From Paragemmobacter kunshanensis (lineage in GTDB: Bacteria > Pseudomonadota > Alphaproteobacteria > Rhodobacterales > Rhodobacteraceae): 64,000 nt of DNA. The notes under the pieces are model-generated. The model was not told the origin of the DNA and ran no database searches. It was given only the letters and a program-made list of their open reading frames with translations. Below are positions 7,859 to 64,000 of the stretch, one piece after another. The translations under genes were made by a program, and so were the position numbers. The DNA lies in assembly GCF_011059185.1 (NCBI RefSeq), contig NZ_JAALFE010000015.1:1-64000 (forward strand). The letters run 5' to 3'. Within the stretch, counting starts at the first letter, position 1; every line of letters starts with the position of its first letter.

Positions 7859-9493
7859 ATGCACAGCCGCCAGATCACCTCTGCCCCGACGACCCGCCTG
7901 CCCCTGAACTGGGCGGGCCTTGCCTGGCTTGCGCTGGCGCTGGTTGGGGCGGCGCTGCTGTTCTGGCCCGGCATCGCCCTTCTGCTGACCGTCTGGCAGA
8001 CCCCCGATTACAGCCATGGTCCGCTGATCCCCGTCCTCTCCGGCCTGCTTTTCCTGCGCCAGCTGAAGACCGAGCCGGTCCTGCATGGCCCCGTCAACCG
8101 CTGGCCCGGTCTTGTGCTTCTGGTCCTGTCGGTCACCTTCGGCCTTCTGGGCCAGATGGTCGACACCCCCATGGTCACCGCCATCGCCCTGATCGTCTGG
8201 TTCGGCGCAATCCTGCTTGTCTGCTTCGGCTGGGACCAGGGCCGCCGATTCTGGCCGCCGATCCTGCATCTCTGCTTCATGCTGCCGCTGCCCGGCACGA
8301 TCTATTACAAGATCTCGATCACGCTGCAGCTCATCTCGGCCGAACTGGGCGTCTGGCTGCTCCGGCTGGCCGATGTCCCGGTCTTCCTTGACGGCTACAT
8401 CATTGATCTGGGCGTGCTGAAACTCCACGTGGCCGAGGCCTGTTCCGGCCTGCGCTATCTCTTCCCCATCCTCAGCTTCTCCTACATCTTCGCGATCCTC
8501 TTCCAGGGTTCGCTCCTGACCAAGGGGATCATGCTGCTCTCCGCCGCCCCCATCGCGGTGCTGATGAATTCGGCCCGCATCGCCATCGCAGGCATGATCG
8601 TGCAGTATCAGGGGGCCGAGCATCTGGAGGGCTTCTCGCATTTCTTCGAAGGCTGGGTCATCTTCCTTCTGTCCATCATCATGCTCTTCGGCCTGGCCCG
8701 GCTGCTTCTGATGTTCCGCCGGGACCGGATCACGCTGGTCGATGCGCTGGATCTGGATTTCTCGGGCCTCATGCCGCAGGCCCGCCGCATCGCCCTGATC
8801 GAACCCAGCCGCGCCTTCGCAGCCTTCGCCATCCTCACCTTCGGCGCGGCGGCGCTCTGGCAGGTCTTCCCCACCGTGCGCAGCGTCGAACCCCCGCGTG
8901 CCGAATTCGCCTCCTTCCCCGATCAGATCGGCGATTGGGTGGGCGGCAGACGGCTGGCCCTCGATCCCGAGGTAGCCCGCGCCCTGGGCGCGCAGGACTA
9001 TGTCCTTGCCAATTTCACCAATTCCCGCAGCGAGCAGGTCGAACTCTTTGCCGCATGGTTCCGCGACCAGACCCTCAGCGGCGCGCATTCGCCCGAGGTC
9101 TGCCTTCCCAATGCCGGCTGGGAATTCGCCGCCTTCGACAGGCGCGACATCGGCGCCGAACTTGGCCTCGACAAGCCCTTCCCGATCAACCGCGCCATCG
9201 TCCAGAACGGCGAACAACGGCTTCTCGTCTATTACTACTTCGTCCAGAACGGCCGCCAGATCGCCTGGGATTTCGGCTCGAAGCTCTGGCTCTTCTGGGA
9301 CAGCATCCGCCACGGGCGCAAGGATGGGGGGCTGATCCGTCTGGTCACCGCCATCCCCAAGGGCGAACCCGTCGAAACGGCGGACCGCCGCCTTCAGGAC
9401 ATGGCCCGCGAACTCGACCAGCGCCTTGCCCGCTTCTTCCCCGCGGCCGATGCACGCGCCCAGCCGCAGATGACGCCCATCCCTGCGCCCTGA
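7859..9493 (+). CDS. xrtD: Exosortase fused to an EpsI (DUF3485) domain, XrtD-like
   Basis: A 544-residue polytopic membrane protein. Residues 1-290 form an exosortase with about eight membrane spans and the three conserved catalytic residues: Cys195 in EACSGLR, Arg240 in NSARIA and His261 in GFSHFFEGW. Residues 310-544 form an EpsI domain. Fused exosortase-EpsI proteins in Rhodobacterales are usually the VPLPA-CTERM type (XrtD), which cleaves C-terminal sorting signals at the cytoplasmic membrane in cells that make extracellular polysaccharide. I saw no VPLPA/PEP-CTERM substrate in this window, so its targets must be elsewhere. It ends 7 bp before the convergent glpR stop. Confidence 0.85.
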   Translation: MHSRQITSAPTTRLPLNWAGLAWLALALVGAALLFWPGIALLLTVWQTPDYSHGPLIPVLSGLLFLRQLKTEPVLHGPVNRWPGLVLLVLSVTFGLLGQMVDTPMVTAIALIVWFGAILLVCFGWDQGRRFWPPILHLCFMLPLPGTIYYKISITLQLISAELGVWLLRLADVPVFLDGYIIDLGVLKLHVAEACSGLRYLFPILSFSYIFAILFQGSLLTKGIMLLSAAPIAVLMNSARIAIAGMIVQYQGAEHLEGFSHFFEGWVIFLLSIIMLFGLARLLLMFRRDRITLVDALDLDFSGLMPQARRIALIEPSRAFAAFAILTFGAAALWQVFPTVRSVEPPRAEFASFPDQIGDWVGGRRLALDPEVARALGAQDYVLANFTNSRSEQVELFAAWFRDQTLSGAHSPEVCLPNAGWEFAAFDRRDIGAELGLDKPFPINRAIVQNGEQRLLVYYYFVQNGRQIAWDFGSKLWLFWDSIRHGRKDGGLIRLVTAIPKGEPVETADRRLQDMARELDQRLARFFPAADARAQPQMTPIPAP

Positions 9494-51640: not shown

Positions 51641-52849
51641 TCAGAAACTCTGCCCCAAGGCAAGGAAGACCAGGGGCGATGTCGCCCGCCCGCCGGCATC
51701 ATCCCGCGTCCGATAGCGCAGGCCAACGTCCAGGGTCGCCCGCTCGGCCACAAGACGGCTGTAGGTTGCCCCGACTTCGGTCTCTTCGACCCGCTCCGAT
51801 GGCGCGTCGCTCACTTCCCAGCTGAAATCCAGAAGCATGGAAGACTGCGCATTGATGCTCCGCTCCCAGGCGAGGGCAAGCGACGTGTCGACGGTCGTCT
51901 CGGCGGCGGCAGCGTCGTATGAGACCGCCCGCGCGACGGACAGGGTTACTTCTCCGTCAGGAAGCTCCTGCGTCAGGTCCAGTCCACCGATCACATCGGT
52001 TCCGCCCAGATCCGAATTGGTTGCCCCGATCCGGGCCACCAGAACGGCGCTGGGGAAATCGTAGCTGCGCGAAAGCTCAAGCGTCGTCCTGTCTTCGGTA
52101 TCGCCGGTGTCGAAGGTCAGCACGGCCGAAGCGGTGCCGGTTGGCAACAGGAAATCCAGCCCGGCTGTCGTGGTCGTGGTGTCCGTCACGACGCCGCTAT
52201 CTTCCACCTCACGCGTGCTGCCCAGGCTCAGCGTGCCGGTCAGCACTTCGGAAAAGCGCAGGCGCGAACCAAGGGTCAGGCCAAGCGTATCGCTTCCGAT
52301 CAAGCCGGGATCGACCGTGTTTTCATACTCGGTCGCATCATAGGTCCCCACCACGAAGATGCTGACGGGCGATGTCCGCAGCGCCTCGTAGGTGATTGTC
52401 GCACCATAGTCGATCTGCGTCCCCACGGCATCGGCATCGGCCAGATCATCTGTCAGGTCCGCGACATCGCCACGCAGATACCGGCCCGTCACGCCAAACA
52501 GGGCATCGGGGATTTCGCGGGTATAGGCCACTGTCACTTCGGGGCGGTCGAACTCGACCTCCGTTCCCGTCGTGGAGGGGGAATTCTCGATCACCAGCGC
52601 GCCGGAAGCGGTAAAGGCGAAACGGTCCAAAGGCGTCTCGCTCAGGATGCCGAAGGTCAGCGTCGTCGCCGAAATGGCGCTGGACCCGTCGGCAGGCACC
52701 GCAAGATCCACGTTCCGCCCGTATTCAAAGCGCTGTTCCACATCAAAGGTGAACCGCACGCCACCGGCATCCTGCGCATGCAGCGGGCCTGCCAGAAGGC
52801 AGGCCGTTGAAAGCAGAAACGCGCCGCGAAGGGATGTCCTTGCCTGCAT
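51641..52849 (-). CDS. Outer-membrane beta-barrel protein associated with polysaccharide export
   Basis: A 402-residue protein with a signal peptide (MQARTSLRGAFLLSTACLLA, cleavage near HA-QD), alternating beta-strand pattern with many Thr/Asp turns (TTTTTAGLDFLLPTG and similar), and a terminal phenylalanine (LALGQSF), typical of outer-membrane barrels. It follows the Wza-like gene by 8 bp, as barrels do in exosortase/EPS clusters. No specific family is assigned. It probably acts in the outer membrane with the export protein. Confidence 0.78.
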   Translation of the reverse strand: MQARTSLRGAFLLSTACLLAGPLHAQDAGGVRFTFDVEQRFEYGRNVDLAVPADGSSAISATTLTFGILSETPLDRFAFTASGALVIENSPSTTGTEVEFDRPEVTVAYTREIPDALFGVTGRYLRGDVADLTDDLADADAVGTQIDYGATITYEALRTSPVSIFVVGTYDATEYENTVDPGLIGSDTLGLTLGSRLRFSEVLTGTLSLGSTREVEDSGVVTDTTTTTAGLDFLLPTGTASAVLTFDTGDTEDRTTLELSRSYDFPSAVLVARIGATNSDLGGTDVIGGLDLTQELPDGEVTLSVARAVSYDAAAAETTVDTSLALAWERSINAQSSMLLDFSWEVSDAPSERVEETEVGATYSRLVAERATLDVGLRYRTRDDAGGRATSPLVFLALGQSF

Positions 52850-52857
52850 GGCCCCGA

Positions 52858-53454
52858 TTACTCGAACAGGCGGCGTTGCGGAACGACGATCACATCGCCA
52901 TCGACAAGCCGGGTCGAACCGAAGTTCGAAGCACCCCGTTCGATCGCATCATAGTCGACGGGATAGATCTTCTCGTTCCCCGCCTTGTCCACGCGGCGCA
53001 GCTGGATCCGCTTTTCGGCCGCGAAGGGCGACAGGCCACCGGCCGCCGACAGCCCCTGCAGCAAGGTCGACCCCGGCGGAACCTCTACCCGGCCGGGCGT
53101 GTTTGCCGCACCAAGGATGAAGATGTCGATGGTCCGCTCCGGACGGTCAATGCGCTCGGCCAGCGAGGCCAGCGACACATAGACCGTGGGCGGCGTGGCA
53201 AAGCTGGGCGACAGCCGGGCTGCCACATCTTCCTGCACTTGCTGCAGCGTGCGACCTGCAGCGCGGACAGAGCCGATCTGCGGGATCGAGATCTGCCCGT
53301 CCGGAAGGATCAGCGCCTGCCTCGTAAGGCTGCCGTCCTCCAGAACCTCGATCTGGATGCTGTCCCCGCGCTGAAGACGGTAATCTTGTGCAACAGCCTG
53401 AGATGCAAGAAGCGGCATCATCAGGACCGCCATCAACGTCTGCAGAATCTTCAT
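52858..53454 (-). CDS. Polysaccharide biosynthesis/export protein, Wza-like
   Basis: A 198-residue periplasmic protein. The signal MKILQTLMAVLMMPLLASQA precedes the Poly_export domain (YRLQRGDSIQIEVLEDGSLT and LPDGQISIPQIGSV) and one SLBB-type segment (FILGAANTPGRVEVPPGSTL). It lacks a lipobox and is shorter than Wza (about 380), resembling the short export proteins of EPS clusters. It is divergent from the PKS gene across 525 bp. Confidence 0.87.
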   Translation of the reverse strand: MKILQTLMAVLMMPLLASQAVAQDYRLQRGDSIQIEVLEDGSLTRQALILPDGQISIPQIGSVRAAGRTLQQVQEDVAARLSPSFATPPTVYVSLASLAERIDRPERTIDIFILGAANTPGRVEVPPGSTLLQGLSAAGGLSPFAAEKRIQLRRVDKAGNEKIYPVDYDAIERGASNFGSTRLVDGDVIVVPQRRLFE

Positions 53455-53979: not shown

Positions 53980-56900
53980 ATGGATACGGGTGAAACCCAC
54001 ATCGCCATCGTCGGGATGGCGGCGCATCTTCCGGGCGCACCGGACATCGGTCGCTATTGGGAAAACCTGCGCGAAGGGCGCTCTGCCGTCCGCCGCCTGT
54101 CGGAGGAAGAGTTGATCGCCGCCGGCGAAAGCCCGGCCATGCTGAAGAACCCCGCCTATGTGCCTTTCGCAGCACCGCTCGAAGGTTTTGATCGTTTCGA
54201 CGCCGAGTTCTTTGGCTTTTCCCCGAAGGAAGCCGCGATCCTTGATCCTCAGCACCGCCATTTCCTCGAAACCGCCTGGGAGGCGCTGGAAACGGCCGGC
54301 CATCCGCCTGAATCCTTCAAGGGGCGCATCGGTGTCTTTGCCGGCTGCGGGATGGGCAGCTATTTCTATTTCAACCTGTGTTCGAACCGGTCTCTGGTTG
54401 AAAGCACCGGGATGTTCCTGTTGCGCCATACGGGCAATGACAAGGACTTCCTTTCTACCCGCGTCAGCCACATTTTCGATCTGAAGGGACCGTCGCTGTC
54501 GCTTCAGACGGCGTGTTCAACCTCTCTCGTCGCTGTCCATTACGCCACCCAGGCCCTGCTGAACGGCGAATGCGACATGGCCCTTGCCGGCGGCGTGACG
54601 ATCGAACTGCCGCAGAACCGCGGCTACATCTACAAGGAGGGCGAAGTCCTTTCGCCCGACGGAATGTGCCATGCCTTCGATCATCGCGGTCAGGGAACGG
54701 TCTTCGGATCCGGCGCGGGCACCGTCGTACTGCGCCGTCTGGAAGACGCGATTGCCGATGGCGATCACATCTGGGCTGTCATCCGGGGAAGCGCCGTCAA
54801 CAATGACGGGGCCGCCAAGGCGGGCTACCTTGCCCCCTCGGTCGAGGGGCAGGCAGCCTGCATCGCCGAGGCATTGCAGATCAGCGGCGTGACCGCCGAC
54901 ACGGTGGATTACATCGAATGCCACGGGACCGGCACCTATCTGGGCGACCCGATCGAAGTCGCAGCCCTGACCGAAGCCTTCCGCCGCACCACCGCCGAGA
55001 CCGGCTTTGCGCGTATCGGCAGCGTCAAGACGAATATCGGCCATCTGGACACCGCCGCGGGCGTCGCCAGTCTGATCAAGGCCACCCTGTCGCTGCATCA
55101 CCGCCAGTTGCCGCCCAGCCTGAACTTCGAAAAACCCAATCCGGCCATTGATTTCGACAACAGCCCCTTCCGCGTGAATGACCGCCTTTCCGACTGGCCG
55201 CGCCGCAAGGGGCCGCGTCGGGCCGGGATCAACTCGCTCGGGGTCGGCGGCACGAATGCCCATGTGATCCTCGAAGAGGCGCCAGAGGTTTCCGCCTCCG
55301 AACAAAGCGACTGGCCCTTCCAACTCCTGACCCTGTCCGCCCGAACGCAGACAGCCCTGAACGAGGCCTCGCAGCGGCTGGCCGCCCATCTGCGCGCGCA
55401 TCCGGAACAGCCATTGGCCGATATTGCCTACACCCTGAAGGAAGGTCGCCGCGCTTTCGAACATCGCCGGGTCATCGTCGCCGCAGATCACGCCGAAGCG
55501 GCTGCGATGCTCGAAGCCGCAGATCCGCGCCGCGTCTTCACGCAGCGCCGCGTGGGGGATCATCCCGACGTTGTCTTCATGTTCCCCGGCGGCGGCGCGC
55601 AATACCCCAACATGGCGCGCGATCTTTATGAAACCGAGCCGGTCTTCGCAGAATGGATGGACAAGGGGCTCGACATCCTCGCCGGTCTGACGACCGAGGA
55701 TATCCGCGCCCTCTGGCTGCCGGAACCCGGGGCCGAGTCTGCCGCAGCCGAGCGGTTGCGCCGTCCCTCCCTGCAACTGCCGCTGATCCTGATCGTGGAA
55801 ATCGCGCTGGCCCGGCTTTGGGAAAGCTGGGGCGTTCGCCCGGCTGCCCTGATCGGCCATTCCATGGGCGAGAATGCCGCGGCCTGCATTGCTGGCGTGA
55901 TGACGCTGGAAGGCGTGATCGGCCTCGTCCATCTGCGCGGCAAGCTGTTCGATACCGTTCCCGCGGGCGGCATGCTTTCGGTGCCGCTTTCCGAAGCGGC
56001 CCTTGCCCCCTATCTTGGCGCTCTCGACATTGCATCGGTCAATGCGCCCGAACTTACCGTGGTGTCCGGTCCGGATGCCGGTCTGCAATCGCTGGCCGAA
56101 CGCCTCAAGGCCGACGGGATCGACACCACGCGCATCGCCATCGACATCGCCGCGCACAGCAAGATGCTGGAGCCGATCCTTGCGGATTTCCGCGCGCATC
56201 TTGCTGGCATGACGCTTTCAGCCCCGCGCATTCCGATCATCTCCAACCGCACGGGCGAACCGCTTACCCCGGCCGAGGCAACCAGCCCTGATTACTGGGT
56301 CGCCCATCTGCGCGGCACGGTGCGCTTTGCCGCCGGGATCGCGACGCTGCGGAAGACCGCGGATCGCGTCTACCTCGAGGTGGGCCCCGGCCGGGCGCTC
56401 TCGACGCTGGCGCAGGCAAATGGCGTGATGGGGGGGCAACCCGTTCCGTCCAGCCTGCGGCATCCGGATGACAAGACATCGGATGATCGGCATTTCATCG
56501 CGACGCTCGGTCGCCTCTGGGCCTGCGGGGCAAATCCCGACTGGTCGCAGATCTGGGGGGAGGCCCGCCGCCGTCGGGTGCCGCTACCCACCTATCCGTT
56601 CCAGCGCGCGCGCTATTTCGTGGAACCCAGCCAGCAGACCACGATCGAAGTGGCCGATGTCCTGCCTGCCCGCCATTCCAGCGTGGCCGATTTCGGCTAT
56701 CGCCTTGCCTGGCGCGCGGCTCCGTCCAACTGCCTTGTGGACGTGGAAACCGATCTTGGTCCCGCGCTCACATGGCTTGTCTTTGCCGATGACGCGGGTC
56801 TGGCGCGCGGGGCCGTGCAGCGGCTGCGGTCTGCGGGGCATCGTGTCATCACGGTGCATGCAGGAGACGCGTTTTCCCGCACCGGCGAAGGCACCTATAC

Positions 56901-59900
56901 CCTGGCGCCCGAGCATGGGCGAGAAGGCTATGATGCGCTGCTGGCCGATCTGGCGATGCGCGAACTTGTGCCGGACCGGATCGCGCATTTCTGGCTGGTC
57001 ACCGATGCCGAGACGTTCCGTCCCGGCTCCAGCTTCTTCCACAGGAACCTTGAACAGGGCTTCTGGAGCCTGTTCTTCCTGGGTCAGGCGATGGGCGAGG
57101 CCGGGCTGAAACCGCTGCCGCACCTGTCCGTCTTCACGTCTGGCGCGATGCAGGTGCGCAACGAGGCCCTGCCCTATCCGGAAAAGGCCACCATCGCCGG
57201 CCCGACCCGCGTCATGCCGCGCGAATTCCCGGGGCTTACGGCGACGCTGCTTGATGTCGGCATGCCGAAGGACAAGCGCGGCATCCCTGCGGAAACGATC
57301 TCCTTCGTGCTTGAGGAAATGCTGGCCACGCCAGGCAACAGCGTGGCCGCCTTGCGCGGATCGCGCCGATATGAAACGCGCCTGACTCGTGACGCGCTGC
57401 CCGATCCGGCAGAGATCCCGGAAGGATCCGTCTGGGTTGTCACCGGCGGCTTCGGTGGCATCGGCGTCACGATTGCCGAACGCCTCCTGCGCGAAAGAAA
57501 GGCAAAGATCGCGCTGATCGGCCGGTCGCTTCCCGCGCCCGAAAGCCTGCGCGCGGGCGTCCTGTCACGGCTGCAACGACTGGGCGAGGTCGCCCCCTTC
57601 GCGGCGGATGTCTGCAATCCCGAAGACATGCGCAGCGCCCTTGATCAGATCCGCGCGCGGTTCGGCCAGATCCATGGCGTGATCCACGCCGCTGGCACCG
57701 TCGATGATGCGCCGCTTCTGGGCAAGGATGCAGGTGCGGCCGAGGCGGTGCTTTCGCCAAAGGTCCACGGCACCAAGCTGCTGGACAATCTCTTCCCGGA
57801 TGGCAGCATCGCGCATCTCGTGCTGTTTTCCTCGACCTCCACCGTGATCGCACCGGCAGGGCAATCCGATTACGTGGCCGCGAACGAATATCTGAACGCC
57901 TTTGCCAAATCGCGCAGCGGCGGCAAGACCAGGGTGACCGCGATCGACTGGGGCATCTGGTCCAGCATCGGCATGGCTGCCGACGCCGCCGCGCGGCGGC
58001 AGGGCGAAGCTGCCGCCGAGTCCCCCTTGCCCGGGCTGCCGATCCTGGAACGCATGGCCCGCACGCCGGAAGGCGCGCGTTTCTCGACAAGCCTCTCCAC
58101 TGCCCAATGGGTGATGGATGATCACCGCCTGAAGGATGGAACGGCCATCCTGCCGGGGGCAGCCTGGCCTGAAATCGTGGCAGAGGCACTCTCTTCCATG
58201 GAAGAGGGCACCGCCTTCACCCTGACGGGACTGACCGTCTTCCGCCCCATCCGGCTCGAGGCAGACGCCCCCCGCGATCTGCGCGTCACACTACTGCGCG
58301 AAAAAGGCGGACAACACCGGCTTGAGGCACGGACGCGCGAAACCGCAGGCTGGGCCCTTGCCGTCGAAGCCGAGATCGCCCCCGCTGCAACCCGCGCGGA
58401 CAGTCTTGATCTGGCGGCCATCCTCCTGCGCTGTCCGAACCGGCAGCTGGCACGCGATGGCGTCGCCCTGCCCAGCGCGCAGGAAGACCGGCTTGCCTTT
58501 GGTCCGCGGTGGCAGGTCCTCCGCAGCACCGCCCTTGGCGAAGGAGAGGGACTCGCAACCCTGTCCCTGCCCACCCATGCCACGGCAGACACGGCAACCT
58601 GCGCCTTGCATCCTGCACTTTATGACATTGGCACGGGCTGGGGGCTTGCCATGCTGCCCGACGCCCCCGAAGGCGAGATCTGGGTTCCGGTCACATCGGG
58701 AACGGTAACGGTTCTGGCACCCTTGCCCGCCGAGATCCGCAGCTGGGCGCGCCTCAAGGGCCAACCCGGGCAGGATACCGCCAGCTTTGACGTGACGCTG
58801 ACCGATCCTTCAGGCCGTATCCTTGTCGAAGTCGAAGGGATCACCTTCCGTTCGGTGGCCGCAGAACAGGTTCTTGCCCGCCCGGCAGCCCCGACACCTG
58901 CCGAAGTGATCGCCGATGGGGATGGCCCACGCGCGCAATCGCCCGCTGAACTGCGGCTGCTTCAGGCGCTCGAAGATGGCATCCGTCCTGCGGAAGGGGC
59001 CGAAGCCTTCCTTCGGGCTCTGACCGTCGGTCAACCGCAGGTGCTTGTGTCTTCCCTGGATCTGGCGGCCCTTGTGCAGCAGGCAGATCAGGCCGAACGC
59101 CCGGCCGAATCCGAAGGGCCCGGCTTTGCAAGGCCGGAACTTGAGACCGCCTATGTCGCCCCCCGGACCGAAGTCGAACGCACGCTCGTCGGTTTCTGGT
59201 CCGATCTTCTTGGGGTTGGAGAAGTCGGGGTCGAGGACGATTTCTTTGCCCTTGGCGGCCATTCCCTGATTGCCGTGCGCCTGTTCGCGATGATCCGCAG
59301 GCAGTGGAAGCTGGAATTCCCGATCTCGATCCTGTTCGAGGCCCCGACGATCGCCCGCTGTGCGGCCCTGATCGCCGAACGCATCGGACCCGAGGATGAG
59401 AAAGCCGCAGATCCGACGGCGAAAGCCAATCCCGCCGGGCCGAAGTTCACGCATCTTGTCGCCATGCATGGCGGCGAGGGTGGCAAGAAGACGCCCTTCT
59501 TCCTGGTCGCCGGGATGTTCGGAAACGTGCTGAACCTGCGCCATCTCGCCCATCTTGTCGGGGCAGAGCGTCCCTTCTACGGCCTGCAGGCCCGCGGCCT
59601 CTTTGGTGATGCGGCCCCCCATGACACATTGGTCGAGGCGGCCACCGATTGCATCGCCGAACTGCGCCAGATCCAGCCGCACGGCCCCTATCTTCTGGGT
59701 GGCTTCTCGGGCGGTGGCCTGACGGCATGGGAAATGGGGCGGCAGTTGCGTGCCGCAGGCGAAGAAGTCGCGCTGGTCGTCCTTCTCGACACGCCGATGC
59801 CGGTGCCGCCACCTCTCAGCCGTGCGGACAGGGCGCTGATCAAGCTGGCCGAGCTGCGCGAAGGCGGCCCGCGCTTCATCGCCGAATGGGCGCGCCGCCG

Positions 59901-60312
59901 GATCGAGTGGGAACGCTCCAAGAAGGCGCGTGCCGCGGGCGAGCCTGATCCCACGGTGCCCTCTTTCCACAATGCGGCCATCGAGGCCGCATTCCGACGC
60001 GCGATCGGTGTCTATCAGCTTGAGCCATGGCCCGAAGGCAATGTGGTTCTTTACCGCCCGCCCCTTGATCGTCACTGGAAGGTGACGGGCGGGAACTGGG
60101 TGAACCGGGAACGCGACTATGTCTTCGCCGACAACCAGTGGACAGCCTTCGCCCCCCGGATCGACGTGATCGAAGTCCCCGGCGACCATGATTCCATGGT
60201 TCTGGAGCCGAATGTAAGGGTGCTTGCCGCACGGCTTCGCGCAGCCCTCGCCCAGGCCGAAAGCGGCCAGACTGCCGGATCCGACGACCAACGCAAGCTT
60301 GCTGCTGAATGA
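53980..60312 (+). CDS. Type I polyketide synthase, KS-AT-KR-DH-ACP-TE
   Basis: A 2110-residue single-module PKS. Ketosynthase, about 1-430: active Cys179 in TACSTSLVAVHY, His315 in ECHGTGT, His355 in KTNIGHLD. Acyltransferase, about 560-870: GHSMGE with Ser628, and His726 in AAHS, closer to malonyl- than methylmalonyl-type. A structural half and then ketoreductase, about 900-1330: TGGFGGIG at 1155 and Ser/Tyr1298/Asn1302. Hot-dog dehydratase, about 1360-1640: His1382 and Asp1549. Acyl carrier: Ser1762 in GGHSL. Thioesterase: Ser1910 in GFSGGG, Asp1937, His2070 in GDHDSM. KR before DH is the reverse of the usual order. Start at 53980 after AAGG. It is 14 bp upstream of the NRPS gene. Confidence 0.9.
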   Translation: MDTGETHIAIVGMAAHLPGAPDIGRYWENLREGRSAVRRLSEEELIAAGESPAMLKNPAYVPFAAPLEGFDRFDAEFFGFSPKEAAILDPQHRHFLETAWEALETAGHPPESFKGRIGVFAGCGMGSYFYFNLCSNRSLVESTGMFLLRHTGNDKDFLSTRVSHIFDLKGPSLSLQTACSTSLVAVHYATQALLNGECDMALAGGVTIELPQNRGYIYKEGEVLSPDGMCHAFDHRGQGTVFGSGAGTVVLRRLEDAIADGDHIWAVIRGSAVNNDGAAKAGYLAPSVEGQAACIAEALQISGVTADTVDYIECHGTGTYLGDPIEVAALTEAFRRTTAETGFARIGSVKTNIGHLDTAAGVASLIKATLSLHHRQLPPSLNFEKPNPAIDFDNSPFRVNDRLSDWPRRKGPRRAGINSLGVGGTNAHVILEEAPEVSASEQSDWPFQLLTLSARTQTALNEASQRLAAHLRAHPEQPLADIAYTLKEGRRAFEHRRVIVAADHAEAAAMLEAADPRRVFTQRRVGDHPDVVFMFPGGGAQYPNMARDLYETEPVFAEWMDKGLDILAGLTTEDIRALWLPEPGAESAAAERLRRPSLQLPLILIVEIALARLWESWGVRPAALIGHSMGENAAACIAGVMTLEGVIGLVHLRGKLFDTVPAGGMLSVPLSEAALAPYLGALDIASVNAPELTVVSGPDAGLQSLAERLKADGIDTTRIAIDIAAHSKMLEPILADFRAHLAGMTLSAPRIPIISNRTGEPLTPAEATSPDYWVAHLRGTVRFAAGIATLRKTADRVYLEVGPGRALSTLAQANGVMGGQPVPSSLRHPDDKTSDDRHFIATLGRLWACGANPDWSQIWGEARRRRVPLPTYPFQRARYFVEPSQQTTIEVADVLPARHSSVADFGYRLAWRAAPSNCLVDVETDLGPALTWLVFADDAGLARGAVQRLRSAGHRVITVHAGDAFSRTGEGTYTLAPEHGREGYDALLADLAMRELVPDRIAHFWLVTDAETFRPGSSFFHRNLEQGFWSLFFLGQAMGEAGLKPLPHLSVFTSGAMQVRNEALPYPEKATIAGPTRVMPREFPGLTATLLDVGMPKDKRGIPAETISFVLEEMLATPGNSVAALRGSRRYETRLTRDALPDPAEIPEGSVWVVTGGFGGIGVTIAERLLRERKAKIALIGRSLPAPESLRAGVLSRLQRLGEVAPFAADVCNPEDMRSALDQIRARFGQIHGVIHAAGTVDDAPLLGKDAGAAEAVLSPKVHGTKLLDNLFPDGSIAHLVLFSSTSTVIAPAGQSDYVAANEYLNAFAKSRSGGKTRVTAIDWGIWSSIGMAADAAARRQGEAAAESPLPGLPILERMARTPEGARFSTSLSTAQWVMDDHRLKDGTAILPGAAWPEIVAEALSSMEEGTAFTLTGLTVFRPIRLEADAPRDLRVTLLREKGGQHRLEARTRETAGWALAVEAEIAPAATRADSLDLAAILLRCPNRQLARDGVALPSAQEDRLAFGPRWQVLRSTALGEGEGLATLSLPTHATADTATCALHPALYDIGTGWGLAMLPDAPEGEIWVPVTSGTVTVLAPLPAEIRSWARLKGQPGQDTASFDVTLTDPSGRILVEVEGITFRSVAAEQVLARPAAPTPAEVIADGDGPRAQSPAELRLLQALEDGIRPAEGAEAFLRALTVGQPQVLVSSLDLAALVQQADQAERPAESEGPGFARPELETAYVAPRTEVERTLVGFWSDLLGVGEVGVEDDFFALGGHSLIAVRLFAMIRRQWKLEFPISILFEAPTIARCAALIAERIGPEDEKAADPTAKANPAGPKFTHLVAMHGGEGGKKTPFFLVAGMFGNVLNLRHLAHLVGAERPFYGLQARGLFGDAAPHDTLVEAATDCIAELRQIQPHGPYLLGGFSGGGLTAWEMGRQLRAAGEEVALVVLLDTPMPVPPPLSRADRALIKLAELREGGPRFIAEWARRRIEWERSKKARAAGEPDPTVPSFHNAAIEAAFRRAIGVYQLEPWPEGNVVLYRPPLDRHWKVTGGNWVNRERDYVFADNQWTAFAPRIDVIEVPGDHDSMVLEPNVRVLAARLRAALAQAESGQTAGSDDQRKLAAE

Positions 60313-60326
60313 CAGGACAAGACCAG

Positions 60327-63300
60327 ATGCCCCTTTCCGCTCTTCTCATCGGGAATGAAAGCCTCACCGCCGAATGCGGGAACTCCTGGCAAGACCGGGG
60401 TCACACCATCAGCGCGGTGATCACCCGAGAGCCGAAGGTCGCCGAATGGGCGACCGGGCATGGCATCCGGGTGATTGCGCCTGGGGCAGGGCTGGCAGGA
60501 CGTGTCGCCGGGCTGGCGGTGGACTGGGTGCTGTCGGTTGCCAATCTGTCGCTCGTTGCGCCCGAGGTTCTGGCCTGCGCCCGCCAAGGGGGCGTCAATT
60601 TCCATGACGGCCCGCTGCCGGGATATGCCGGGCTGAATGCGCCTGTCTGGGCGATGCTTGCCGGAGAGACGCAGCATGGCATCACCTGGCACCTGATGAC
60701 CGCCGGCATTGACGAGGGCGAGGTGCTTGCAACCCGAATGTTCGACCTTGCCCCGGACGATACGGCCTTCACGGTGAATGCGCGCTGCTTTGCGGCCGCG
60801 GTGGAAAGCTTTCCCGAAGTCATGGCCGCGCTGGAAGCCGGTGGTCATCCCCGCCAGCCGCAGGCCGCGGGGCAGCGTCGGGTCTTCTATCGGGCGGATC
60901 GCCCCGCCGCTGCGGCGCGACTGGATTTCAACCAGCCGGCAGAGGCCGTAATCCGCATGCTGCGCGCGCTTGACCATGGCGGATACCGCAATCCGCTTGC
61001 CGTTCCGAAGATCGAGGTTTCGGGAAGGGTGCTGGCAATCGGTTCGGGCGAAGTCGAAACCGGCGCAGGCCAGCCCGGCGATGTTCTGGAGGCGACCGAG
61101 GCCGGTCTTGTCGTGGCCTGTGCAAGCGGCGCTGTGCGCCTTTTCGGGCTGTGCGACATGGGCGGCGCGCCTGTCTGCCCGCGAACCCTGAGGGTGTCGC
61201 GGATCGATTCGCCCACGGACGAGGCAGCGCAGCGCCTGACCGCCATTCTGCGCCCGATTGCAGAGGCCGAACAGCATGCCCGCAGCCTGCTCTTGCGCAG
61301 CGATCCGCTGGACCTTGGCTCTGCACCGGGTGCGGCCGCAGACTGGCATGCCGTCCCGCTTGATCTCGCCGGGGCGAGTGTCGCGCGCGCGTCCCTTGCC
61401 CTCTTGCGCGCAGCAGGCAGGACCGGGGGCGATCTCGTCGCTTCCGCCGGGCCGTCGCCTGCACCCGGCTATGTTCTGCCATGGTATCCCTTGCGACTGG
61501 TCGCCAGCGGCGCTGCAGGCGCGGCCGAGGCCGCCGCCACGCGGGCCATTGACGCGGCACTGAAGGCAGGGGGACTCGCCGCCGATCTCGCCCTGCGCGA
61601 GCCTGGCATCGGGACGCTCGCCCCCTTCCCGGTTGGCCTTTCGTCGATGGATGCGCCTGTGGAAGGCACGGCACTGACCCTGTCCTTCGGCCCCAAGGGT
61701 GCAACCCTCTGGCATGATGCGTCCCGGATGGATGCCGCGCAGGCCGGGACGATTGCGCAACGGGTGACGCGGCTTTCTGCCGCCATTGCCGCTGCGCCCG
61801 ATGGCGAGCTTGCGGCGATGTCCGCCCTTGCACCGGAAGAACTGGCCGCCTTGTCAGGCGCCCTCGCTGCAACCGCCAAGGACTATGATCGCAACCTGAC
61901 GATCACCGCCGCCGTCCTGGCCGAAGCGGCGCGCCGTCCGGCCCATGTGGCCGTGATCGCAGGCGGCACCAGACTGACCTATGCCGAGCTTGTCTCCCGC
62001 GCTGCGCGCATCGCACATCTTCTGCGTGGCATGGGCGTGAAACGGGGCACGCTTGTCGGCCTGGCCTGCCACCGTGGCGCGGACATGATCGCCGCCGCGC
62101 TGGGCATCCAGATGGCTGGCGGTGCCTATGTGCCAATGGATCCGGCCTATCCTGCCGATCGCCTCGCCCTTTACGCCGAAGATTCCGGCGCGCCCGTGAT
62201 CGTGACGGAATCCTCGGTCGCCCCAGCCCTTCCCGAAGGCCCGGCGCGACTGATCCTCGACACCGATACCCGCTTGTCGGTCGCGCCCGAAATCCCGCCA
62301 TCCGAGGGGCCGCTGGCCGAGGATCTGGCCTATGTCATCTATACTTCAGGCTCCACCGGGCGCCCCAAGGGCGTGATGGTGACCCATCGCAACGTGATCA
62401 ATTTCTTTGCGGGAATGGATGACGCCGTGGGAAGCGAGCCCGGGACATGGCTTGCCGTAACGTCGATGTCCTTCGATATCTCCGTGCTGGAACTGTTCTG
62501 GACATTGACCCGCGGCTTCACCGTCGTTGTTGCGGATGATGCCGCAAGGCTCAGCCCTTCGGGCGGGCCGGCGGTGGAAGTCTCGGATCGCGGGATGGAA
62601 TTCAGCCTGTATTACTGGGGCAATGACGGTGGGTCGGGCCCCAAGAAATACGAACTCCTGCTGGAAGGCGCGAAATTCGCCGACAGCCACGGCTTCTGTG
62701 CCGTCTGGACGCCAGAGCGCCACTTCCACGCCTTTGGCGGCCCCTATCCGAACCCCTCTGTCACCGGGGCCGCAGTCGCGGCGGTGACGCGGAACATCGG
62801 TGTGCGCGCGGGCAGCTGCGTGGCCCCCCTGCATCACCCCGCCCGGATCGCCGAGGAATGGGCCATCATCGACAACCTGACCAATGGCAGGGCGGGCCTT
62901 GCCATCGCCTCCGGCTGGCAGCCGGACGATTTCGTCCTGCGCCCCGAGAATACCCCTCCCGCGAACCGGCAGGCCATGCTCGACTCGATCACCACCCTGC
63001 GCCGCCTTTGGAAGGGCGAAGCGGTGGAATTCCCGCGCAAGGATGGCAGCCCCTTTGCCGTCGTCACCCAGCCGCGCCCGGTTTCCCCTGACCTGCCGGT
63101 CTGGGTAACCACCGCAGGCAACCCGGAAACCTGGCGCGATGCCGGGCGCCTGGGCGCGAATGTGCTGACCCACCTTCTGGGACAGTCGATCGCCGAGGTG
63201 GGCGACAAGGTGAAGATCTACCGTGCGGCCCTGGCAGAGGCGGGCCACGATCCTTCGGCGTTCAAGGTAACGCTGATGCTGCACACCTATATCGCGGCAG

Positions 63301-64000
63301 ATCGGGAAGCCGCTCGGGAAACGGCGCGCGGCCCGATGAAGGATTACCTGCGCAGCGCGGCCACGCTGATCAAGCAATACGCCTGGGCCTTTCCGGCCTT
63401 CAAGAAACCGCAAGGCATCGCCAATCCGATGGAAATCGACCTTGGCTCCCTGGATGCCGAGGAGTTGGAAGCGATCCTCGACTTCGCCTTCCAGCGCTAT
63501 TTCGAGGAGTCCGGTCTGTTTGGAACGGTCGAGGATTGCGTGACCCGCGTCGAAGAGGTGAAGGCGATCGACGTGGACGAGGTCGCCTGTCTGATCGACT
63601 ATGGCATTCCTTCCGCCAAGGTCCTGGAAGGGCTGATCCCGCTGGCCGAGGTCCTGCAGCGCGCCAATGGATCCGCCGCGTCCGACGGGTCGCTGGCCGG
63701 GCTGATCCGCACGCATCGGGTGACGCATATGCAATGCACGCCCTCGATGGCGCGCATGCTGTCCGAAGATGACGGCGCGCGCTCGGCCCTGCAGGGGCTC
63801 AGACGCCTGCTCGTCGGCGGCGAGGCCCTGCCCGGCCGGCTGGCAACGGATCTCTCCCGATTGATCGACGGACCTGTGCTGAACATGTACGGCCCGACCG
63901 AAACCACCATCTGGTCGTCGGTGGAAAGCACAAGCGGCGCGGAAGGGACGGTCAATATCGGGCAACCCATCGCCAATACGGCGCTGTATGTTCTGGACCA
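60327..64000 (+). CDS. NRPS with formyltransferase and luciferase-like monooxygenase inserted in the adenylation domain (partial)
   Basis: An open frame of at least 1224 codons with no stop before the window edge. Residues 1-290 form a methionyl-tRNA-formyltransferase-like domain with the catalytic Asn91 and His93 (NFHDGPLPGYAG) and Asp129 (GIDEGEVL). Residues 290-530 resemble the second half of a condensation domain but lack HHxxxDG. The adenylation domain begins near 540: SGSTGRPKG at about 674 and FDIS at 716. From 757 to about 1090 lies an FMN luciferase-like monooxygenase of the MupA/Atu3671 type (MEFSLYYWGND, TPERHFHAFGGPYPNPS). A-domain motifs resume (MYGPTET, 1187). The carrier domain would follow beyond 64000. 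It is 14 bp after the PKS. Confidence 0.88.
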   Translation, partial: MPLSALLIGNESLTAECGNSWQDRGHTISAVITREPKVAEWATGHGIRVIAPGAGLAGRVAGLAVDWVLSVANLSLVAPEVLACARQGGVNFHDGPLPGYAGLNAPVWAMLAGETQHGITWHLMTAGIDEGEVLATRMFDLAPDDTAFTVNARCFAAAVESFPEVMAALEAGGHPRQPQAAGQRRVFYRADRPAAAARLDFNQPAEAVIRMLRALDHGGYRNPLAVPKIEVSGRVLAIGSGEVETGAGQPGDVLEATEAGLVVACASGAVRLFGLCDMGGAPVCPRTLRVSRIDSPTDEAAQRLTAILRPIAEAEQHARSLLLRSDPLDLGSAPGAAADWHAVPLDLAGASVARASLALLRAAGRTGGDLVASAGPSPAPGYVLPWYPLRLVASGAAGAAEAAATRAIDAALKAGGLAADLALREPGIGTLAPFPVGLSSMDAPVEGTALTLSFGPKGATLWHDASRMDAAQAGTIAQRVTRLSAAIAAAPDGELAAMSALAPEELAALSGALAATAKDYDRNLTITAAVLAEAARRPAHVAVIAGGTRLTYAELVSRAARIAHLLRGMGVKRGTLVGLACHRGADMIAAALGIQMAGGAYVPMDPAYPADRLALYAEDSGAPVIVTESSVAPALPEGPARLILDTDTRLSVAPEIPPSEGPLAEDLAYVIYTSGSTGRPKGVMVTHRNVINFFAGMDDAVGSEPGTWLAVTSMSFDISVLELFWTLTRGFTVVVADDAARLSPSGGPAVEVSDRGMEFSLYYWGNDGGSGPKKYELLLEGAKFADSHGFCAVWTPERHFHAFGGPYPNPSVTGAAVAAVTRNIGVRAGSCVAPLHHPARIAEEWAIIDNLTNGRAGLAIASGWQPDDFVLRPENTPPANRQAMLDSITTLRRLWKGEAVEFPRKDGSPFAVVTQPRPVSPDLPVWVTTAGNPETWRDAGRLGANVLTHLLGQSIAEVGDKVKIYRAALAEAGHDPSAFKVTLMLHTYIAADREAARETARGPMKDYLRSAATLIKQYAWAFPAFKKPQGIANPMEIDLGSLDAEELEAILDFAFQRYFEESGLFGTVEDCVTRVEEVKAIDVDEVACLIDYGIPSAKVLEGLIPLAEVLQRANGSAASDGSLAGLIRTHRVTHMQCTPSMARMLSEDDGARSALQGLRRLLVGGEALPGRLATDLSRLIDGPVLNMYGPTETTIWSSVESTSGAEGTVNIGQPIANTALYVLD

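What the first reader, a model, noticed from the sequence alone, without database searches (positions are those of the whole stretch)
53980..64000. Hybrid PKS/NRPS locus whose domain combination looks unusual
A one-module PKS (KS-AT-KR-DH-ACP-TE) lies 14 bp upstream of an NRPS that starts with a formyltransferase and has a monooxygenase built into its adenylation domain. Two features seem to compete for the ends of the line: the PKS has a thioesterase of its own, and the NRPS has a formyltransferase that in linear gramicidin-type systems starts synthesis. Possible readings are two separate products, a TE used for transfer or proofreading, or an NRPS product that is passed to the PKS. I cannot name the product. 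This is the best candidate in the window for an undescribed pathway.
Basis: partly seen in the sequence, partly recalled or inferred. Interest (0 to 1): 0.85.

Follow-up and report, generated by a model that had tools for sequence, protein, structure and literature searches.

The report
Two-enzyme acyl line for exopolysaccharide
Two giant enzymes that probably build a small modified-glycine acid sit, with their helper genes, inside a slime-polysaccharide gene cluster, as they do in many related bacteria, which suggests that the acid decorates the polysaccharide; what they make has not been shown.

Summary
The PKS is KS-AT-KR-DH-ACP-TE. The NRPS, cut by the window end, is a complete 1531-aa protein: formyltransferase (FT), condensation-domain remnant, glycine adenylation domain split by a luciferase-like monooxygenase (MOX), carrier. 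A phosphopantetheinyl transferase and an SGNH-type protein follow, inside an exopolysaccharide (EPS) cluster. It is no oddity: 76 of 248 sampled family genomes have a near full-length NRPS, and 108 of the 110 closest loci read have the PKS beside it (the other two are cut short), mostly with a glycosyltransferase between. Catalytic residues are conserved; the adenylation code equals one published for glycine/MOX domains. The two 'ends' do not compete: the NRPS has no active condensation domain and none was found in the draft genome, so the FT module should start synthesis and the PKS finish it. Relatives agree: NRPS gene upstream of PKS gene, PKS ending in C or C-A-PCP-TE. Most likely a formylglycyl-type starter is extended, reduced and released as a small acyl group for the EPS. 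Direction is well supported; product, fate of the oxidised glycine and attachment to sugar are inferred. The EPS link fails in a sister clade. Orphan but widespread; new variant of a known kind.

The parts
53980..60312 (+). Type I PKS, 2110 aa, KS-AT-KR-DH-ACP-TE
   Evidence: orthologue beside the NRPS in 108 of 110 loci, own locus included
53998..55131 (+). Ketosynthase (Cys179, His315, His355)
   Evidence: PF00109/PF02801; residues 73 of 73 rows
55573..56388 (+). Acyltransferase; Ser628, Arg653; motif IAAH (neither HAFH nor YASH, motifs recalled)
   Evidence: PF00698; 73 of 73 rows
57430..57963 (+). Ketoreductase
   Evidence: PF08659; Ser1285, Ser1287, Tyr1298, Lys1261 73 of 73 rows, Ser1284 57 of 73
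58039..58869 (+). Dehydratase, placed after the KR
   Evidence: PF21089 and PF14765; His1382 and Asp1549 73 of 73 rows
59182..59373 (+). Acyl carrier domain
   Evidence: PF00550; Ser1762 73 of 73 rows
59440..60249 (+). Thioesterase (Ser1910, Asp1937, His2070); limits are mine, the Pfam stretch is 1864-1941
   Evidence: PF00975; 73, 73 and 72 of 73 rows (one gap)
60309..64000 (+). NRPS FT-(C lobe)-A-MOX-A-PCP, 1531 aa; continues outside the window to contig position 64904
60309..61193 (+). Formyltransferase domain, Asn97, His99, Asp135
   Evidence: PF00551/PF02911; 109 of 109 rows; model close to Met-tRNA formyltransferase and ArnA
61206..61886 (+). Remnant C-terminal lobe of a condensation domain, no HHxxxDG half
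   Evidence: profile match of its last 60 positions to the C-terminal end of C domains and the C-A linker; weak Pfam hits in 3 of 40 members, not in the window's own; confident alpha/beta model
61923..62555 (+). Adenylation domain, first part
   Evidence: PF00501
62601..63653 (+). Luciferase-like monooxygenase inserted in the adenylation domain
   Evidence: TIGR04020; closest solved relative PuwE 6ket
63672..64000 (+). Adenylation domain, second part (continues to about 64466 outside the window); glycine code DILQLGMIWK; then carrier domain 64560-64754
52858..53454 (-). Polysaccharide export protein (Wza-like), part of the surrounding EPS cluster
   Evidence: PF02563/PF10531; TIGR03027 97.5 bits, under its cut-off of 180
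51641..52849 (-). Outer-membrane-like protein (my label) that travels with the export gene
   Evidence: found in 14 of 110 loci, as Wza is; no family hit

Best explanation
The two proteins form one short assembly line that runs against the gene order. The NRPS starts it: the A domain loads glycine on its carrier, the formyltransferase formylates the amino group, and the monooxygenase can hydroxylate the alpha carbon. The acyl group passes to the PKS ketosynthase, is extended once with a malonyl-type unit, reduced (KR) and possibly dehydrated (DH), and is released by the TE as a C4-type acid bearing a formamido group or what remains of it. The PPTase encoded next arms the carriers. In the exopolysaccharide clade the acyl group is then put on a sugar or polymer, with the intercalated glycosyltransferase and the SGNH protein as partners. 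Shown by sequence: domains, conserved residues, glycine code, absence of a C domain, operon, EPS setting in many loci. Inferred: flow of intermediates, one round of extension, product, attachment to glycan.
For: Glycine: code DILQ(M/L/F)GMIW in 107 of 109 rows, the other two having an X and a V; a paper reports four MOX-bearing Gly domains with the identical code DILQLGMIWK (PMC12283262, passages). MOX on glycine: SolF, myxothiazol, melithiazol (PMC10204066, passages). FT as initiator: Asn/His/Asp kept in 109 of 109; the linker looks like a C-domain remnant without the catalytic half; no condensation-domain candidate in the own draft genome. Direction: NRPS gene upstream of PKS gene on the same strand in L138, L139, L142, L143 (L139 and L142 are near twins) and L179; Deinococcus L138 carries its FT as a separate gene; Aliiroseovarius L191 has the FT module followed by one protein KS-AT-KR-DH-ACP-C-A-PCP-TE; the Deinococcus PKS ends in ACP-C. 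EPS: PPTase match directly after the NRPS in 72 of 80 loci; at least one EPS marker in 76 of 80 loci against 3 of 12 control C-domain NRPS loci; of the eight annotated FT-type plasmid loci that I read, seven list polysaccharide genes in their own annotation and one does not. Glycosyltransferase between PKS and NRPS in 60 of 80 loci.
Against: No chemistry was seen. Why an N-formyl group and an alpha-hydroxylating MOX act on the same glycine is unexplained; in myxothiazol such hydroxylation cleaves the glycine. One round of extension is assumed, not tested. The EPS link does not hold in the sister clade (L143 beside a zinc-type ABC transporter; L191 beside nos genes), and only 5 of 13 distant loci had an EPS marker by my profiles. 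The marker profiles were built from the case loci themselves. In G586 (L143) the FT His is replaced by Phe. The AT motif IAAH gives no extender preference that I know. By sequence the FT is closer to tRNA and sugar-nucleotide formyltransferases than to the LgrA FT. The SGNH resemblance to glycan acyl enzymes is weak.
Confidence: 0.5

Rival explanations
1. Same assembly line, but the product is a free secreted small molecule (signal, metallophore or similar) and its genes only travel with EPS genes.
For: TE would give a free acid; sister-clade copies lie outside EPS clusters, one beside a ZnuA/ABC-3 transporter; a survey paper treats the hybrid cluster on the Paracoccus marcusii plasmid as an ordinary secondary-metabolite cluster without known relative (PMC8273931, passages).
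Against: Association with EPS genes, and an intercalated glycosyltransferase, in Rhodobacteraceae and Hydrogenophaga loci; EPS genes also around the Aminobacter and Shinella copies.
Confidence: 0.25
2. MtaG-like reading: the PKS acyl chain goes to the glycine on the NRPS, the MOX hydroxylates and cleaves it, leaving a primary amide.
For: Same kind of A(Gly)-MOX unit as in MtaG, MelG and SolF; PKS gene precedes the NRPS gene here.
Against: No active C domain in the protein and no candidate in the draft genome; the PKS has its own TE; FT would have no role; reversed order and C-A-PCP-TE fusion in relatives.
Confidence: 0.1
3. The NRPS makes N-formyl-alpha-hydroxyglycyl, which breaks down to formamide and a glyoxylyl thioester; the PKS then starts from glyoxylate and makes an aldehyde-bearing C4 acid. 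The formyl group is a throw-away cap.
For: Carbinolamide cleavage to a glyoxylyl thioester is described for myxothiazol and melithiazol (PMC10204066, passages); explains why FT and MOX occur together.
Against: In solanimycin B the hydroxyglycine survives; no direct evidence here.
Confidence: 0.15
4. Two separate products from two neighbouring enzymes.
For: Each has its own carrier; FT and TE are on different proteins.
Against: The pair is together in 108 of 110 loci and also in divergent and reversed arrangements; the NRPS has no release domain of its own.
Confidence: 0.05

Closest known systems
Linear gramicidin synthetase LgrA initiation module (F-A-PCP)
   Same: N-terminal formyltransferase on an NRPS that starts a chain; LgrA matches P0002 in four stretches
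   Different: FT similarity to LgrA is weak (31-33 bits, against 69-71 bits to Met-tRNA formyltransferase and ArnA); a C-lobe remnant lies between FT and A; MOX inserted; glycine, not valine (LgrA substrate recalled)
MtaG / MelG (myxothiazol, melithiazol) and SolF (solanimycin) Gly-MOX modules
   Same: Glycine A domain with built-in monooxygenase; same ten-letter code as four published Gly-MOX domains
   Different: Those act on a chain already made; here FT stands in place of an active C domain and no TE follows in the same protein
MupA/Atu3671 family luciferase-like monooxygenases (TIGR04020), PuwE
   Same: 478 bits against 244.45; PuwE 6ket E 2e-100
   Different: MupA and PuwE are free-standing enzymes (recalled); here the domain is an insertion in A
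Unnamed PKS/NRPS genes already listed in genome papers: Phaeobacter inhibens Inhi_1972/Inhi_1974, Paracoccus marcusii CP157 hybrid cluster
   Same: The system is on P. marcusii plasmid pCP157_02, where the paper places its hybrid HSR/NRPS/T1PKS cluster; the P. inhibens tags fit PKS - one gene - NRPS (PMC4062626 passages). Neither was matched gene by gene
   Different: Described only as secondary-metabolite genes; no EPS link, direction or product in the passages read

Membership tests
Gramicidin-type initiation module | Formyltransferase domain at the N terminus with its catalytic residues | tested here: met
   Asn97, His99, Asp135 in 109 of 109 rows; residue roles recalled
Gramicidin-type initiation module | No active condensation domain before A | tested here: met
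   no PF00668 in P0002 at E up to 0.01; only a C-terminal remnant
Gramicidin-type initiation module | Formyl-aminoacyl thioester is made | not testable with these tools
   needs enzyme assay
MtaG-type Gly-MOX amide-forming module | Glycine code with MOX inserted in A | tested here: met
MtaG-type Gly-MOX amide-forming module | C domain that joins an upstream chain to glycine | tested here: not met
TIGR04020 monooxygenase family | Score over the curated cut-off | tested here: met
   478 against 244.45 bits
Modular type I PKS | KS, AT, ACP with active residues | tested here: met
Modular type I PKS | Usual order DH before KR (recalled) | tested here: not met
   KR 1151-1328 precedes DH 1354-1630; also in the Deinococcus and Aliiroseovarius relatives
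XrtA-type EPS export system (neighbouring genes) | NCBIfam cut-offs of TIGR03027, TIGR03007, TIGR03015 | tested here: not met
   97.5/180, 185.2/278.85, 249.1/324.5 bits: related, not members
Known natural-product cluster (MIBiG) | Same domain order with known product | not testable with these tools
   MIBiG not held; paper searches listed under Tried and rejected showed no such cluster

The most novel reading that the evidence does not exclude
A PKS/NRPS assembly line dedicated to an extracellular polysaccharide: it makes a glycine-derived acyl unit (formamido acid, or after MOX cleavage an aldehyde acid that could crosslink the slime) that is fixed to sugars, so that many Rhodobacteraceae carry polyketide-peptide decorated EPS rather than a free metabolite.
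Probability: 0.4. Interest if true: 0.8.

Novelty: new variant of a known kind. Interest (0 to 1): 0.6.

Why it matters
If right, an orphan PKS/NRPS pair that is common in a major aquatic bacterial family is not an antibiotic maker but part of the surface-polysaccharide machine. That would change how genome-mining tools count it, give a route to a polysaccharide decoration built on an assembly line, and offer a small two-protein system in which to learn what a monooxygenase does to a formylated glycine.

Tried and rejected
Fragment NRPS: rejected, the gene is complete to contig position 64904. PKS-to-NRPS amide formation: disfavoured for lack of a C domain. Chance neighbours: rejected. Linker as a separate enzyme: I prefer a C-lobe remnant; the Foldseek search listed only the FT half in its 50 rows (formyltransferases, formyl-THF dehydrogenases, HypX) and gave nothing on the linker, and the Pfam scan of the linkers also had equally weak hits to unrelated families (EAD1 in 3 of 40, best 0.0021). 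Not tested: one round of extension against iteration, AT specificity, KS phylogeny. Literature: (0 papers); no paper on this pair in an EPS role was seen in the listings. Papers read in passages only: PMC10204066, PMC8739492, PMC8273931, PMC9860996, PMC12283262, PMC4062626, PMC5064897, PMC4818494.

Limits of the counts. The 110 loci are the best 80 of 509 relatives that one search found (a capped list) plus the 30 best-scoring loci; they favour close relatives, include the own locus (L091), and some come from the same species (L018 and L092 share their SGNH sequence as far as printed). In one search, 72 of 108 PKS and 108 of 110 NRPS sequences passed the length filter; the own reference was added to each. 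For the control, 12 of 14 fetched C-domain loci were used; L184 and L185 (under 4 kb) were left out before the count; the 12 come from 10 genomes and several are short. The Fisher value 1.6e-7 ignores relatedness and the circular markers. Of the plasmid hits I read nine FT-type loci (one, L139, bears no annotation) and three MOX-NRPS without FT. Deinococcus sits on a long branch and its place in the tree is unsure.
Full report
WHAT IS THERE. The window is the first 64000 bases of a 123316-base contig of a 4.46-Mb draft genome in 117 contigs. The PKS at 53980-60312 has KS-AT-KR-DH-ACP-TE. The NRPS starts at 60309 (or at the second ATG, 60327) and ends at 64904: FT, a linker of about 220 aa, an adenylation domain split by a luciferase-like monooxygenase, and one carrier domain. 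The next genes on the same strand follow within a few bases: a PPTase (64907-65560; family hit, coordinates) and an SGNH-like protein (65557-66507). So this looks like a four-gene operon. Around it lie genes whose best family hits are polysaccharide export, chain-length determinant, tyrosine autokinase, XrtA-associated ATPase, undecaprenyl-phosphate sugar transferase, several glycosyltransferases, an ABC transporter and a UbiA/HAD protein, plus an O-antigen-ligase-like gene (my label; its Ruegeria counterpart scores 24.3 bits, under the Pfam cut-off of 31.7). The EPS export genes resemble the XrtA type but stay under its cut-offs.

HOW COMMON. Of 248 family genomes searched (own included), 112 match the NRPS at E<=1e-50; by my reading of the table, 78 matches in 76 genomes span at least 1400 of 1531 residues. 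The one genome of the same genus in that sample lacks it (G104). With the FT-plus-linker part as query, 13 of 385 class genomes and 29 of 398 phylum genomes match at E<=1e-20; most of the weaker hits are FT alone or FT in NRPSs where I saw no MOX. Outside the family, FT-A-MOX-A-PCP beside a PKS was confirmed in G528 and G586 and in G756, G862 and G900. Annotated plasmids add Aminobacter, Shinella, Paracoccus, Ruegeria, Deinococcus and others. Seven Hydrogenophaga loci carry it.

SYNTENY. In 110 loci (the best 80 of 509, and 30, own locus included) the PKS is beside the NRPS in 108; the two misses are a contig edge (L061) and a short fetched locus (L118). In the 80 longer loci: a glycosyltransferase between PKS and NRPS 60, direct contact 15 (the window's clade), other 4, PKS frame missing 1. 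A PPTase match starts within -300 to 900 bp of the NRPS stop in 72 of 80; of the other eight, three end too soon and five have none. SGNH homologues are in 47 of 80. At least one EPS marker lies in 76 of 80 loci, in 3 of 12 control loci that hold C-domain NRPSs from the same family, and in 5 of 13 distant loci. The markers were built from the case loci, so independent annotation matters: of eight annotated FT-type plasmid loci read, seven list polysaccharide genes (L135, L136, L137, L138, L192, L193, L194) and L191 does not.

ACTIVE SITES. FT Asn97, His99 and Asp135: 109 of 109 rows (own protein counted twice). Glycine code: DILQMGMIW 72, DILQLGMIW 26, DILQFGMIW 9, two others. KS, AT, DH, ACP, TE Ser and Asp, KR Tyr and Lys: 73 of 73 rows; TE His 72 of 73 (one gap); of the KR serines two are 73 of 73 and one 57 of 73. 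A paper on A-domain codes states that four Gly domains with MOX share exactly DILQLGMIWK (PMC12283262, passages). That paper puts such inserts between motifs A8 and A9; here the insert lies after FDIS (residue 722) and before YGPTE (from residue 1195), so the place differs from that statement.

THE LINKER. A profile of 40 linkers matches, over its last 60 positions, the C-terminal end of condensation domains and the C-A junction (8hlk, E 2.7e-9). Three of 40 members weakly hit Pfam Condensation (best 0.002), the window's own does not, and unrelated families score as weakly. AlphaFold gives a confident alpha/beta fold (mean pLDDT 95.8 over FT and linker). I read it as the C lobe of a C domain whose catalytic half was replaced by the FT. 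The first look at the own genome gave no C-domain candidate, so the NRPS is unlikely to extend an incoming chain in the usual way.

DIRECTION. A tree of the A-MOX-A-PCP part (33 rows, midpoint root) gives an EPS-type clade (26 rows, 100/100) and a second clade with Methylobacterium, G586, Aliiroseovarius and G900 (100/99), with Deinococcus on a long branch. In the second clade and in Deinococcus the NRPS gene lies upstream of the PKS gene on the same strand; in Aminobacter, Shinella and the unnamed G756 and G862 the two are divergent. In Aliiroseovarius the second protein is KS-AT-KR-DH-ACP-C-A-PCP-TE, and the Deinococcus PKS ends in a condensation domain with HHLAADA. There the FT module is the natural start. 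I therefore read the line as NRPS first, PKS second.

CHEMISTRY, INFERRED. Formyl-glycyl carrier, optional alpha-hydroxylation, one malonyl-type extension, ketoreduction, perhaps dehydration, release by TE (or by C in Deinococcus). Whether the MOX leaves the hydroxyglycine in place (as in solanimycin B) or cleaves it (as in myxothiazol), both described in PMC10204066 (passages), decides between a formamido acid and a glyoxylate-derived acid. The SGNH neighbour was modelled through its L011 orthologue (pLDDT 94.8). Only two PDB matches fall below 1e-3, a DUF4886 protein and a putative lipase of Bacteroides; weaker ones include PatB, OatA, an LPS acetyltransferase and carbohydrate esterases. That fits handling of acyl groups on a glycan but does not prove it.

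VERDICT. The new point is the EPS setting. My confidence in direction is about 0.75, in EPS use about 0.6, in the exact product low.

Noticed in passing
window 7985-9442: XrtD (VPLPA-CTERM exosortase), 576 bits over a cut-off of 400; in Ruegeria conchae XrtD lies in the same stretch as the PKS.
   Followed up: partly
L143 2795-7719: The sister-clade copy in G586 lies next to a ZnuA/ABC-3 metal transporter and a TPP enzyme, which hints at a metal-related product there; its FT motif has Phe in place of the catalytic His.
   Followed up: partly
L136 14992-19583, L138 11785-17108; G186, G040, G005, G044, G208, G217: FT is a separate gene in Paracoccus marcusii and Deinococcus; six near full-length NRPS matches in family genomes show one stop codon inside, split gene or assembly error not distinguished.
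   Followed up: no
L191 12025-25764: Aliiroseovarius plasmid: FT-A(Gly)-MOX-PCP followed by KS-AT-KR-DH-ACP-C-A-PCP-TE with no EPS genes annotated around it; looks like a complete free-standing line.
   Followed up: partly
G126 and G132: Two near full-length NRPS copies in each of these genomes.
   Followed up: no
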